Assembly (NCBI GenBank): GCA_023662865.1
Contig: JAMPIK010000005.1
Location: forward strand, 1-64,000
DNA: 64,000 nt
Direction: 5' to 3'
DNA from: Prevotella sp.
GTDB taxonomy: Bacteria; Bacteroidota; Bacteroidia; Bacteroidales; Muribaculaceae
Shown in pieces: positions 15,016 through 54,419 of this stretch. The notes below the pieces were generated by a model, which ran no database searches, had not been told where the DNA came from, and was given only the letters and a program-made list of their open reading frames with translations. Every line of letters begins with the position of its first letter. The stretch's first letter is position 1. A program made the position numbers and the translations under genes.

Positions 15016-16548
15016 ATGTTCAAGAATCAACCAAAGGGACTAATTCCCGCGGCTTTGAGCAATATGGGAGAGCGCTTCGGCTACTACATTATGAATGCCG
15101 TGCTGGTGCTGTTCTTGTGTTCAAAGTTCGGTTTGAGCGAGGAGACAAGCGGTATTATATACTCTGTCTTCTATGCCGGTATCTATGTGTTGTCTCTTGT
15201 CGGCGGTATTATTGCCGATAAGACACAGAATTACAAACGTACTATTATTCAAGGTCTTGTAGTCATGACACTGGGCTATGTTGTACTTGCAATTCCAATT
15301 CTCAGCACGCCCGACAACAAAACATGGCTTTTGACACTCACCTGCTTTGCATTATTCCTGATTGCGTTCGGTAACGGTCTGTTCAAAGGCAACTTGCAAG
15401 CAATAGTCGGACAGCTCTATGACAATCCCAAATATGCTTCACAGCGCGACTCCGGCTTCCAAATTTTCTATGTATTCATCAACATCGGTGGTGTACTTGC
15501 CCCCTTTATCGCCCCCATGCTTCGCTCCTGGTGGCTTGACACAAACGGCCTTGTATACAATGGTGATTTCCCGGCAATGTGCCACGCGTTCTTGAGCAAT
15601 GCCGATTCCATGAGCAACGAAACCATCAACAACTTCTATGCCATCATTACCGGCATGGGTGGTTCCATAGCCGACAAAGTTGAGATTCAAGCCTTCTGCA
15701 CTCGCTATCTTGAGGTATTCAACACCGGTGTACACTACTCATTTATCGCCTCTGTTGCAGCAATGATGATTTCTCTCTGCATCTTTGCCGTAACGAAGAA
15801 AGGCCTGCCCAATCCCTCTGCAAAAGCAAAAGCGGAAACTGCAAATTACACACCGGCAGAGAAAGCTGCAATGGCCAAGGAAATCAAGCAACGTATGTAC
15901 GCTTTGTTTGCAGTGCTTGGTATTGCAATCTTCTTCTGGTTCTCATTCCACCAGAATGGTACTTCCATGTCTCTTTTCGCACGCGACTTTATGGACACTT
16001 CCTCCATACCGCCTGAAATTTGGCAAGCAATGAACCCCTGCTTCGTAATCTTGCTTACTCCCCTCATAATGGCAATATTCAGTGCACTCTCACGCCGCGG
16101 TAAAGAAATTTCCACACCACGCAAGATTGCAATTGGTATGGGTCTTGCAAGTATTGCCTACATCTTTATGATGATATTCTCATTGGTAATTAATTATCCC
16201 TCCGCAACAGACTTCAAGGGCCTCGCAGCAGCTGTAAAAGCGACAATGATGGCCGGTCCGTGGGTACTTATATTGTACTACTTCTTCATGACCGTTGCAG
16301 AGTTGTTCATTTCTCCGCTGGGACTTTCCTTCGTTTCAAAAGTAGCACCCAAACACATGCAAGGTTTATGTCAGGGCTTGTGGCTTGGAGCGACAGCCGT
16401 CGGCAACCTTATGCTGTGGGTAGGCCCTCTGATTTACAATGCAGCCCCGATATGGATTGCATGGGCAGTCTTCGCAGCTGTCTGCATCATATCAATGGGT
16501 GTAATGTTCGCTATGGTTAAATGGCTTGAACGTGTCACCAACAGCTAA
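15016..16548 (+). CDS. POT/PTR-family peptide:H+ symporter (MFS)
   Basis: The 510-aa protein has about 12-14 hydrophobic segments and the POT-type start LSNMGERFGYYIM. It should import di- and tripeptides or a related solute across the inner membrane with protons. In the classical E1xxE2R proton-coupling motif the first Glu is Asn16 here, while Glu19 and Arg20 remain. I recall the same change in other Bacteroidales homologues. It may therefore be a lineage variant with altered coupling or substrate. A hydrophilic insert lies at about 190-225. A structured repeat begins 16 bp after its stop. Confidence 0.88.
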   Translation: MFKNQPKGLIPAALSNMGERFGYYIMNAVLVLFLCSKFGLSEETSGIIYSVFYAGIYVLSLVGGIIADKTQNYKRTIIQGLVVMTLGYVVLAIPILSTPDNKTWLLTLTCFALFLIAFGNGLFKGNLQAIVGQLYDNPKYASQRDSGFQIFYVFINIGGVLAPFIAPMLRSWWLDTNGLVYNGDFPAMCHAFLSNADSMSNETINNFYAIITGMGGSIADKVEIQAFCTRYLEVFNTGVHYSFIASVAAMMISLCIFAVTKKGLPNPSAKAKAETANYTPAEKAAMAKEIKQRMYALFAVLGIAIFFWFSFHQNGTSMSLFARDFMDTSSIPPEIWQAMNPCFVILLTPLIMAIFSALSRRGKEISTPRKIAIGMGLASIAYIFMMIFSLVINYPSATDFKGLAAAVKATMMAGPWVLILYYFFMTVAELFISPLGLSFVSKVAPKHMQGLCQGLWLGATAVGNLMLWVGPLIYNAAPIWIAWAVFAAVCIISMGVMFAMVKWLERVTNS

Positions 16549-16563
16549 TACATAACAAGACAC

Positions 16564-16675
16564 TAAGCGCATCGCGCTTACATAATGTTAACCCCACGAA
16601 ATGCGAGTGCCTGAACGGCACGAGTCTTCGTGGGGTTTTGCGTACTCACTTACACCAATCGCAGCGCGGTTGCAC
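16564..16675 (+). repeat. Structured dispersed element, copy 1
   Basis: Three consecutive hairpins lie here. The first is TAAGCGC-ATC-GCGCTTA (16564-16580). The second is a long one with outer arms CCCCACGA (16592-16599) and TCGTGGGG (16628-16635) and inner arms GTGCC (16607-16611) and GGCAC (16617-16621). The third is CAATCGC-AGC-GCGGTTG (16656-16672). The same arrangement occurs on the minus strand at 54227-54119 with compensatory stem changes. Hairpin 2 is followed by TTTT and could double as the terminator of the transporter gene. Confidence 0.8.
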
Positions 16676-16732: not shown

Positions 16733-18109
16733 ATGGATGCTTCTTTACCTTTGGAATTTATTGATGAACTGACGCGAACGTTGGGCGCAGAACAGGCGTT
16801 GGCGTTGGCTAAGGCTCTTGATACGGAGCCTGTTGTCGGTGTGCGTCTTAACCCTATGAAGTCCGGCGTTGCGCCTACTGACGCTCAGCGCGTGCCTTGG
16901 TGCGAACAGGGGTATATTTTGTCGGAGAGACCGCGTTTTACGCTCATGCCCTCTTGGCACGGCGGTTGCTTTTATGTGCAGGAACCGGCTTCCATGATTA
17001 TCTCCGAGGTGATAAAGCACGTTGCCCGGCTGATAGGTCTGGAAGATGTTAAATATCTTGATTTGTGTGCCGCTCCGGGAGGCAAAACTACCGCGGCTCT
17101 TTCGGCATTGCCGAACAGTGCATTTGTTGTTGCCAATGAGTTTGTACCGGCTCGCGCCAACATACTTGCCGAAAATCTTACTAAATGGGGGTATCCGAAC
17201 ATTGCGGTAAGCTGTGGGGATACCGCGGCTTACCGCAAGCTGAAACACGCCTTTGACATTGTGGCGGTAGATGCTCCCTGTTCCGGAGAAGGAATGATGC
17301 GCAAAGATGAACAGGCACGCAGCCAGTGGTCTCCGGCCTTGGTAAAACAGTGCGCCGCTCTTCAACGCGAAATTCTTGACAATGCGTGGGAAGCACTGCG
17401 CCCCGGGGGGTATCTGATTTACAGCACTTGCACGTTCAACAGAGATGAGAACGAGGATATGCTTCGGTATGCAATCAACGAGTATGGAGGAGAAAGCGTA
17501 GACCTCGGCTTAAACGACGAGTTTAACATTCCGGGCAGTATTGAGGCAAATCTGTATGCACTGCGATTTATGCCTCATCTCACCAACGGCGAAGGCTTGT
17601 TTCTCGGCGTTCTCCGCAAGCCGGATGACAAAGGGGCCACACGTCAAAGTAAATCAAAGGGGAAAGTTACACGCAAGGCTGAAAACAAATTGCCCGTTGA
17701 TGCAAGGTCATTGTTGAGCAATCCCGATGATTTCAATTTCGCACAGACAGCTTCGGGAATTTGGCGCGCCTTGCCAAAGAGTCATGCCTCGTTTATCAAT
17801 AAACTTTCGCAAGCTGCCCGGTTGCTGATAGCCGGAGTTACTCTTGGCGAAGTGAAAGGAAAAAATTTCGTGCCGGGCACATCGCTTGCTCTAAGCACGG
17901 CACTTTTGCCCGAAGCATTTCCGCGAGTTGAGGTAGATGAACAAACAGCTCTGAGCTATCTGCGGCGTGAGGCATTGTCACTGCCGACAGACTCACCCAA
18001 AGGATATGTCGTTATATGCTCGGGAGGAGATTGCCTCGGCTTTGCCAAGAATTTGGGTAACCGTGCCAACAATCTTTACCCGGCGCATTGGCGCATCCGA
18101 AATATATAA
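16733..18109 (+). CDS. RsmF/RsmB/NOP2-type rRNA (cytosine-C5) methyltransferase
   Basis: This enzyme transfers methyl from SAM to a cytosine in rRNA (or tRNA). From the ATG at 16733 it is 458 aa; the longer frame from 16601 runs through the structured repeat and is rejected. Motif I is DLCAAPGGKT, motif IV is DAPCSGEGMMRKD and motif VI is YSTCTFNRDENED, so both catalytic cysteines of the m5C family are present. The last ~150 residues resemble the C-terminal RNA-binding domain of RsmF, preceded by a basic linker. The exact target base cannot be told from the sequence. Confidence 0.92.
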   Translation: MDASLPLEFIDELTRTLGAEQALALAKALDTEPVVGVRLNPMKSGVAPTDAQRVPWCEQGYILSERPRFTLMPSWHGGCFYVQEPASMIISEVIKHVARLIGLEDVKYLDLCAAPGGKTTAALSALPNSAFVVANEFVPARANILAENLTKWGYPNIAVSCGDTAAYRKLKHAFDIVAVDAPCSGEGMMRKDEQARSQWSPALVKQCAALQREILDNAWEALRPGGYLIYSTCTFNRDENEDMLRYAINEYGGESVDLGLNDEFNIPGSIEANLYALRFMPHLTNGEGLFLGVLRKPDDKGATRQSKSKGKVTRKAENKLPVDARSLLSNPDDFNFAQTASGIWRALPKSHASFINKLSQAARLLIAGVTLGEVKGKNFVPGTSLALSTALLPEAFPRVEVDEQTALSYLRREALSLPTDSPKGYVVICSGGDCLGFAKNLGNRANNLYPAHWRIRNI

Positions 18110-51837: not shown

Positions 51838-53118
51838 ATGAAAAATTTTTTAATTTTGGTATTGTCAGCCACAATACTTAGCGCATGTTCCAACATAGAG
51901 GAACTGAAGCCGCAAATAACTAACACAAGCCAGGAAACGATTACTTCAACCCACATCAGCAAGAGCGATGCTGTTGAAATTGCAAAAAATTTATTGCATC
52001 AGACCAGTGTAGGAACTCGCTCAACTAAACTAAATGAGCCGACAGAGTTCAAATATGTAATGTCTCGAATGAAGACAAGAGCAAACGTCAATCTTAGTGA
52101 TACTTTAGCTTACATCATTAACTTTCCTGATGATGCCGGATATGTAATTGTAGCTTCTGATAATCGCATCAATCCTATTCTTGCATTTTCAGAAGTAGGC
52201 AACTTTGACCCTAGCAATGAACTTGTTCAACAATATTTCATTGACAAAATTGAACCATACATGATAGAGGCAGCCATGTCTGATGACGGATATACATACA
52301 ATACCGATAATTTTTATTGGGATTCGTGTGTAAGAATTGAAAATCAAGGTTCTTATGGACTGCATCAACTTGCACCTTATAATAAATATATAGCCGAGGA
52401 ACACCCGGGGTATCCGGCAGGGTGTGTCACGATTGCCGTGGCGAATATAATTTCACAAGCAAAAGCAGAATTAAATGATTACCATGGCATGACATTTTCT
52501 CCTCGTGCTGCAAGAAACGCAATGAAGAAAGAATGGGATGCAAAAAACGCATTGAGAAAGAAAATTGTACCTGCAGAAGGATATTACATACCTACTTATA
52601 CCTACGACGAGGCTCTTGAATATATCTGTAAGCTTATTTATTGGCTTAGTAAAGATTTAGAAATAGAATTCAAAGTGGATAAAAATGGAGGGAAGGGAGG
52701 CTATGGTGATTCCAATAAAGCAAAACCTATGTTTGAAAAATTAGGTTTATATGTACCTTTCGGATTGAGCGACTGTAATTTAAATGATATTGTGTATTAT
52801 CTCACTAACAACTATACGATTTACATGAGAGGAACCGATGTTACGTTTGATAATAATTGGGTAGGACATGCTTGGGTCTGCGATGGTTGCTATTTTTGTT
52901 ACGACCAATCCAATCTTGATGAAAACGGCAATTACAAGAAAAGAGATATATTTATACACTGTGATTGGGGTTGGAGTGAAAAAGATGTATCATATTTTAA
53001 TGGGGATTTGTTAATTAAATTTAATTTTGAACTTGAAATTGGCCATGCAAATTTCAAGATGATTAAATATTTCCCGGTTCAATGTGACAAAATTGCAGAT
53101 CCCTATAGTATATTATAA
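51838..53118 (+). CDS. C10-family (streptopain-like) cysteine peptidase lipoprotein
   Basis: The 426-aa protein has a lipoprotein signal (lipobox SAC, then SNIEE). An inhibitory prodomain of the Spi type follows (about 40-145; AYIINFPDDAGYVIVASDNR). The catalytic domain has Cys196 in AGCVTIAVANI and His344 in GHAWVCDGC. C10 enzymes such as SpeB and interpain are secreted as zymogens and degrade host or environmental proteins. The gene is AT-rich compared with neighbours. The next gene starts 15 bp downstream, so they are probably co-transcribed. Confidence 0.88.
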   Translation: MKNFLILVLSATILSACSNIEELKPQITNTSQETITSTHISKSDAVEIAKNLLHQTSVGTRSTKLNEPTEFKYVMSRMKTRANVNLSDTLAYIINFPDDAGYVIVASDNRINPILAFSEVGNFDPSNELVQQYFIDKIEPYMIEAAMSDDGYTYNTDNFYWDSCVRIENQGSYGLHQLAPYNKYIAEEHPGYPAGCVTIAVANIISQAKAELNDYHGMTFSPRAARNAMKKEWDAKNALRKKIVPAEGYYIPTYTYDEALEYICKLIYWLSKDLEIEFKVDKNGGKGGYGDSNKAKPMFEKLGLYVPFGLSDCNLNDIVYYLTNNYTIYMRGTDVTFDNNWVGHAWVCDGCYFCYDQSNLDENGNYKKRDIFIHCDWGWSEKDVSYFNGDLLIKFNFELEIGHANFKMIKYFPVQCDKIADPYSIL

Positions 53119-53997: not shown

Positions 53998-54419
53998 TCC
54001 TTTTACCGACAACCTAATCTACAGTAAGAGTTCCGCATATCTATGTCGGGCTTGGTTACTGCCCCGGCCACACACGGCTACGATGCGTGTAACCTGGGTT
54101 AGTTATTGGGTAGTTTGGGTGCAACCGCGATGCGGTTGGGGTGGTGGTTTGGGTGTACCTCACGAAGACTCGCGCCTTTGGCACTCGCATATCGTGGGGT
54201 TAACTAAGTGGAAGCACTATGTGCTTCTCTGTATGCTGTAAGTCAGTAGCTTATACGATTGTCGGGGGAGGTATCATAATTCAATTTTAGAGAAATCGTG
54301 AATTATATTCTATTGAGATTCAGGAGTATAATTTCTTGATTTTATTGATTTTCTGAATTATGATAAACCTTCTTACTTTATGTCAGCGGGCTTCGCGCGC
54401 CTTTGACGATAAGGGACTC
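53998..54419. other. Gene-free stretch containing the second structured repeat
   Basis: No gene is visible in these 422 bp. It contains copy 2 of the structured element (54119-54227). The remaining sequence is AT-rich near 54270-54360 without clear signals. Confidence 0.6.
54119..54227 (-). repeat. Structured dispersed element, copy 2
   Basis: Read on the minus strand this matches copy 1 at 16564-16675. Hairpin 1 is GAAGCAC-ATA-GTGCTTC. Hairpin 2 has outer arms CCCCACGA/TCGTGAGG and inner arms GTGCC/GGCGC, and shares TGCGAGTGCC and CGAGTCTTCGTG with copy 1. Hairpin 3 is CAACCGC-ATC-GCGGTTG. Hairpin 1 differs from copy 1 by two paired changes, so the structure is kept while the sequence changes. 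It lies downstream of the minus-strand nagZ-like gene. Confidence 0.8.

What the first reader, a model, noticed from the sequence alone, without database searches (positions are those of the whole stretch)
16564..16675. Dispersed three-hairpin element with compensatory changes (copy 1; copy 2 at 54119-54227)
Two ~110-bp copies 37 kb apart share the same order of three hairpins and conserved single-stranded blocks (TGCGAGTGCC, CGAGTCTTCGTG). Hairpin 1 is TAAGCGC/GCGCTTA here and GAAGCAC/GTGCTTC there, so two base pairs changed on both sides. Hairpin 3 has a U-G pair here and a C-G pair there, and the inner stem of hairpin 2 also swaps a normal pair for G-U in the other copy. Paired changes point to selection on an RNA or hairpin structure. 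Both copies lie downstream of a gene and in its orientation. This could be an undescribed 3'-UTR element, small RNA family or REP-like mobile repeat.
Basis: seen in the sequence. Interest (0 to 1): 0.72.

Follow-up and report, generated by a model that had tools for sequence, protein, structure and literature searches.

The report
Three-hairpin repeats of a single-strand transposase
Two look-alike 110-base DNA elements in this gut Bacteroidales genome belong to a family of scattered three-hairpin repeats that, in related bacteria, sit as mirror-image pairs around a gene for a single-strand DNA-cutting transposase whose DNA partner had been reported as missing, so they are probably the DNA that enzyme recognises and spreads.

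Summary
Both 110-bp copies carry three hairpins in the same order, and the changes are compensatory. The genome holds 12-13 copies, with sharp borders at H1 and just after H3. Among 111 genomes searched in the genus, 14 carry the family. On 74 distinct copies the structure covaries strongly (score 0.334 against at most 0.029 for slid versions). No Rfam family matches.

It is most likely not an RNA gene or 3'-UTR element but the ssDNA substrate (REP/TIR type) of a Y1 HUH transposase. In ten relatives' loci, TnpA genes are bracketed, most on both sides, by inverted three-hairpin units (H1-H2-H3 > tnpA < H3'-H2'-H1'). One (G217) carries the window's own type. Across 80 Bacteroidota-dominated loci of this enzyme, 56 of 76 testable have inverted flanks (0 of 64 distal controls). 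Three-hairpin order occurs in 50% of flanks against 5% distal. Triloops are GNA rather than TNC, 172:27, which fixes the folded strand. The enzymes carry Y---Q--HH, the signature of TnpAY1 subclass 1.2, published as having no REP partner.

The window's genome keeps only a truncated enzyme, so its copies look like orphans. Mobilisation is inferred, not shown.

The parts
16564..16675 (+). Element copy 1, complete unit H1-H2-H3-GCAC
   Evidence: conservation in the genome starts at H1 and stops at GCAC
16564..16580 (+). Hairpin H1 (TAAGCGC-ATC-GCGCTTA), outer end of unit
   Evidence: covariation
16588..16635 (+). TTAA plus central hairpin H2 (CCCCACGAA..inner stem GTGCC/GGCAC flanked by CGAG/CGAG..TTCGTGGGG)
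   Evidence: shared with the transposase-linked element of G217
16656..16675 (+). Hairpin H3 (CAATCGC-AGC-GCGGTTG) and GCAC, the end of the unit
54119..54227 (-). Element copy 2, complete unit
54211..54227 (-). Hairpin H1 of copy 2 (GAAGCAC-ATA-GTGCTTC)
54158..54203 (-). TTAA plus central hairpin H2 of copy 2
54119..54138 (-). Hairpin H3 of copy 2 (CAACCGC-ATC-GCGGTTG) and GCAC
15016..16548 (+). Host gene before copy 1: POT-family peptide transporter
   Evidence: Pfam PTR2 2e-47; in G028 the same gene is followed by two tandem copies
16733..18109 (+). Host gene after copy 1: RsmB/F-type rRNA methyltransferase; in G087 the same gene pair is adjacent without the element

Best explanation
The two loci are copies of a three-hairpin REP/TIR-type mobile element, the DNA partner of a Y1 HUH (TnpAY1 subclass 1.2-like) transposase. 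Shown by sequence: the unit H1-H2-H3 has fixed order and sharp borders, its stems covary, it is dispersed and patchy, and in relatives the same kind of unit brackets a ~147-aa Y1 transposase gene in inverted orientation. Inferred: the enzyme binds the folded top strand when it is single-stranded (for example the lagging-strand template), reading the terminal GNA-loop hairpins H1 and H3, with H2 as a further recognition or spacing hairpin. It nicks near the unit ends with its tyrosine and copies or moves the unit elsewhere. In the window's genome the enzyme of this type survives only as a gene truncated before the catalytic tyrosine, so the copies here look like orphans of an element family active in relatives.
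For: Bracketing: G063:C57, G088:C15 and G125:C267 have inverted units on both sides of the tnpA gene; G217:C18, in another genus, has an intact tnpA between two units with the window's own H2 (AACCCCACGATACGCGA..GAGTCTTCGTGGGG). Across 80 loci from a genome-wide protein search, 56 of 76 testable have inverted flanks at score 20 or more, against 0 of 64 distal controls and 5 of 76 mismatched pairs. Triloop hairpins: 6.05 per kb near the gene against 0.53 per kb distal. Three-hairpin order: 76/152 flanks against 14/280 distal and 5/300 shuffled. Strand: GNA loops outnumber TNC 172 to 27 on the strand pointing at the gene. Covariation: 189 double-change cells, score 0.334 against 0.015-0.029 slid. 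Dimers and tandems as in REPINs/BIMEs. Enzyme: Y---Q--HH in 72 of 76, homologous to solved IS608-type TnpA.
Against: No intact enzyme of this type is found in the window's own genome and neither tnpA remnant is flanked by the element. No target-site duplication or nucleotide-exact empty site was shown; the G087 comparison is synteny only. The canonical GT[AG]G foot of REPs is not conserved on the folded strand. 20 of 76 loci lack clear inverted flanks. G000's H1/H3 loops mostly are not GNA. The G.T against A.C test of strand was inconclusive (33 to 19).
Confidence: 0.83

Rival explanations
1. The element is a 3'-UTR RNA element, terminator or mRNA-stabilising hairpin cluster; the H2 hairpin ends or protects transcripts, and spread is secondary.
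For: Copies are intergenic, several follow a same-strand gene closely; the structure is stable as RNA.
Against: Orientation to genes is mixed. A T-run after H2 is present only in copy 1 (TTTT) among the full copies. The same units bracket tnpA on both sides in inverted orientation. No Rfam match.
Confidence: 0.08
2. The units are terminal inverted repeats of an ordinary (MITE-like) transposon and the hairpins are incidental.
For: G063/G102 forms have near-perfect ~37-bp inverted ends around 260 bp.
Against: Single, direct and tandem units are as common as inverted pairs. Stems covary, and GNA loops are strand-specific, which dsDNA TIRs would not need. No target-site duplication was seen by eye at the two G063 pairs inspected.
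Confidence: 0.05
3. The hairpins around tnpA serve mainly to shield the transposase gene from outside transcription, and the dispersed copies are by-products of gene loss or recombination.
For: Units on both sides point their H3 towards the gene; transcription shielding is known from other insertion sequences (own knowledge).
Against: Dozens of solo copies per genome without any tnpA, with unit-length borders.
Confidence: 0.04

Closest known systems
REP / REPIN elements with their RAYT (TnpAREP), e.g. E. coli, Pseudomonas, Stenotrophomonas (PMC2817692, PMC3116915, PMC8266576)
   Same: Dispersed intergenic palindromes, single, direct, inverted and tandem, flanking a Y1 HUH transposase gene
   Different: Three hairpins in fixed order and ~110 bp rather than one 20-40 bp palindrome; no conserved GT[AG]G foot on the folded strand; enzyme motif Y---Q--HH rather than Y---NP
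TnpAY1 subclass 1.2 (Quentin et al. 2018, PMC6006769)
   Same: ~148 aa, Y---Q--HH, low copy number, Bacteroidetes
   Different: The paper lists no REP for it and generally no typical terminal IS200 structures; here most loci have flanking three-hairpin units
TIRtron / TIRYT (Di Nocera et al. 2013, PMC3733652)
   Same: Y1 transposase gene flanked by long inverted repeats that also occur as dispersed families; some contain self-complementary tracts
   Different: Those enzymes are mostly subclass 2.1 with a C-terminal HTH, and most of their TIRs share GGGGWSAS; neither holds here
IS200/IS605 (IS608, ISDra2)
   Same: Homologous TnpA; two subterminal hairpins in the same orientation, comparable to H1 and H3
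   Different: Middle hairpin H2; units bracketing tnpA are inverted copies, not left and right ends; most copies lack the gene

Membership tests
REP/REPIN with RAYT | Multi-copy palindromic units in intergenic DNA | tested here: met
REP/REPIN with RAYT | Units flank a Y1 tnpA gene (REPtron) | tested here: met
   in relatives; not in the window's own genome
REP/REPIN with RAYT | GT[AG]G tetranucleotide 5' at the foot of the hairpin | tested here: not met
   no conserved 5' tetranucleotide on the GNA strand; GTGG/GTGC occurs only on the opposite strand in some copies
REP/REPIN with RAYT | Cleavage of the folded ssDNA by the linked enzyme | not testable with these tools
   needs biochemistry
TnpAY1 subclass 1.2 (the linked enzyme) | Y---Q--HH motif | tested here: met
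   10 of 10 in A6, 72 of 76 in the wide set
TnpAY1 subclass 1.2 (the linked enzyme) | Length about 148 aa, Bacteroidetes/Cyanobacteria | tested here: met
   the subclass HMM itself was not available
TnpAY1 subclass 1.2 (the linked enzyme) | No associated REP or terminal structures (as published) | tested here: not met
   most loci have structured inverted flanks; contradicts the published description
TIRYT/TIRtron | tnpA flanked by long inverted repeats | tested here: met
TIRYT/TIRtron | GGGGWSAS motif in the TIR | tested here: not met
   the window-type TIR reads GGGGTTAA
TIRYT/TIRtron | C-terminal HTH domain in the enzyme (subclass 2.1) | tested here: not met
   proteins end ~30 aa after the Tyr motif; only Y1_Tnp found by Pfam in the G217 protein
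IS200/IS605 insertion sequence | Copies carry tnpA between distinct left and right ends | tested here: not met
   most copies have no gene; flanks of tnpA are inverted copies of one unit
Known RNA families (Rfam 15) | Match above gathering score | tested here: not met

The most novel reading that the evidence does not exclude
The three-hairpin unit is a self-contained single-strand transposable unit of an undescribed design: H1 and H3 act as left and right ends in the same orientation, H2 is a third obligate recognition hairpin, and one subclass 1.2 TnpA mobilises it in trans, making this a separate REP-like system across Bacteroidota.
Probability: 0.4. Interest if true: 0.75.

Novelty: new variant of a known kind. 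Interest (0 to 1): 0.6.

Why it matters
Subclass 1.2 Y1 enzymes are listed in the only classification found here as close to IS200 transposases but without IS structures or REPs, so their substrate was unknown. This work names a concrete candidate substrate with defined borders, folded strand and dozens of natural variants, which makes their activity directly testable in vitro. It also adds a three-hairpin architecture to the REP/TIR world and explains a class of structured intergenic repeats in gut Bacteroidales that could otherwise be mistaken for RNA families.

Tried and rejected
Rfam search with gathering and E-value thresholds gave nothing. Integron attC was considered and dropped: no GTTRRRY core at the palindrome ends. 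Own-genome Y1 genes were checked first and found unflanked, which nearly hid the link; the intact G028 enzyme is bracketed by a different repeat. A strand test by G.T against A.C pairs was inconclusive (33 against 19); the GNA/TNC loop test settled it. The AA-GC bulge of E. coli REPs, seen by eye in several H2 hairpins, holds only in one subclade (4-5 loci). The 2.2-kb inverted pair in G088 brackets only a glucuronate isomerase-like host gene. A universal guide tetranucleotide next to the hairpins was sought and not found.

Full report
Observation. Both copies are exactly where stated. They align over the whole unit, fold far better than shuffles (z -4.6 and -5.0), and differ by paired changes. 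In the same genome (2.03 Mb, 41 contigs, 99.8% complete) the consensus finds 12 copies and one more cut by a contig end.

Spread. A DNA search of 61 relatives found the element only in the own genome and G028, a same-genus species with 13 blast matches. A covariance model of H1-H2 then found it in 14 of 111 genomes searched in the genus (35 copies in G088, 21 each in G063 and G028) and 10 of 397 in the family at 1e-6. The patchiness speaks for mobile DNA. Contig lengths and database titles show G088 and G091 to be the Muribaculaceae MAGs HAN063 and HAN064, so the window is from that family.

Structure. On 74 distinct copies 95.4% of cells pair, 15 of 21 pairs have double changes, and the covariation score is 0.334 against 0.015-0.029 for slid partners and 0.091 for shuffles. 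The alignment was fitted to the model and so leans towards it, but the unfitted 17-copy alignment shows the same (0.125 against at most 0.032). Layouts seen: single units, tandem direct repeats (G028:C11), H1-H2-H1' inverted forms (G028), and long H1-H2-H3..H3'-H2'-H1' pairs (G063, G102, G091). These are the layouts of REPs, REPINs and BIMEs.

Link to a transposase. Searching relatives for Y1 transposases (PF01797) put tnpA genes inside inverted units: G063:C57, G088:C15 and G125:C267 on both sides; G091:C64 with units on both sides (the downstream one partly masked); G063:C56 and G102:C47 (the latter a pseudogene); and analogous units with other stems at G087:C1, C19, C36 and G015:C4. The closest to the window is G217:C18, from another genus: an intact 147-aa enzyme between two units whose H2 reads AACCCCACGATACGCGA..GAGTCTTCGTGGGG, as in the window. 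The enzymes match solved IS608-type TnpA structures and carry Y---Q--HH.

Generality. A genome-wide search with the enzyme alignment gave 80 loci, nearly all Bacteroidota, from Muribaculaceae to Chryseobacterium and Spirosoma. Of 76 testable, 56 have an inverted repeat across the gene at score 20 or more; 64 distal region pairs have none, and 5 of 76 mismatched pairs do. Perfect triloop hairpins are 11 times denser in the flanks than further out. Three-hairpin order occurs in 76 of 152 flanks, 14 of 280 distal windows and 5 of 300 shuffles. Loops are GNA against TNC 172 to 27 on the strand running towards the gene. GNA triloops are known as unusually stable DNA mini-hairpins (own knowledge), which fits a folded ssDNA substrate. 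The loci are not independent of one another (many Chryseobacterium), and they were ranked by likeness to the query.

Own genome. The enzyme profile matches one gene at C1:52450, over positions 1-112 only, stopping before the catalytic tyrosine, and it is not flanked by the element. A second, unrelated remnant lies on C17. The copies in the window are therefore orphans unless an intact gene is missing from the assembly; contigs C10 and C23 end 17 bases after H3 of a copy, where such a gene would be expected.

Insertion site. Copy 1 lies between a POT transporter and an RsmF-type methyltransferase. In G087 the same gene pair is separated by about 83 bp without the element; in G028 two tandem copies follow the same transporter gene. 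This is one shared site out of the 13 compared, and the empty-site evidence is synteny, not a nucleotide-exact junction.

Known or new. Quentin et al. 2018 (PMC6006769) define TnpAY1 subclass 1.2 by Y---Q--HH, ~148 aa, Bacteroidetes and Cyanobacteria, and list no REP for it. Di Nocera et al. 2013 describe inverted-repeat-flanked relatives, most of which Quentin et al. place in subclass 2.1. No paper in the library searched describes the present element; subscription papers are not covered, so priority is not certain. I call it a new variant of a known kind (REP/TIR with Y1 transposase), with the specific claim that it supplies the missing DNA partner of subclass 1.2.

Noticed in passing
L049:1000-2700 (G028:C20): An intact subclass 1.2-type tnpA sits in an array of a different repeat (GGCGCGCGTAGCCCGCC with CACACGGCGCAGCCGGGTGTG), so G028 has two element families, one with and one without its enzyme.
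   Followed up: partly
G000 contigs C10, C23, C32, C31, C41 (L014, L012, L018, L013, L016): Five contigs of the window's genome end in or near copies of the element, suggesting further, longer repeats not assembled.
   Followed up: no
L158, L175, L182, L193 upstream of tnpA: H2 there has an AA/GC internal mismatch in the same layout as the conserved bulge of E. coli REPs.
   Followed up: partly
L161, L170 (Spirosoma): tnpA flanks hold a very long near-perfect palindrome (ATCCA..AACGCCGAAGGTGTTGAC) rather than three short hairpins.
   Followed up: no
window 51838-53118: C10-family peptidase with a Spi inhibitor domain.
   Followed up: no
L028:1442-1489 (G000:C1): A palindrome with 27-nt arms (93% complementary) directly before the truncated tnpA of the window's genome, unlike the dispersed element.
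   Followed up: no
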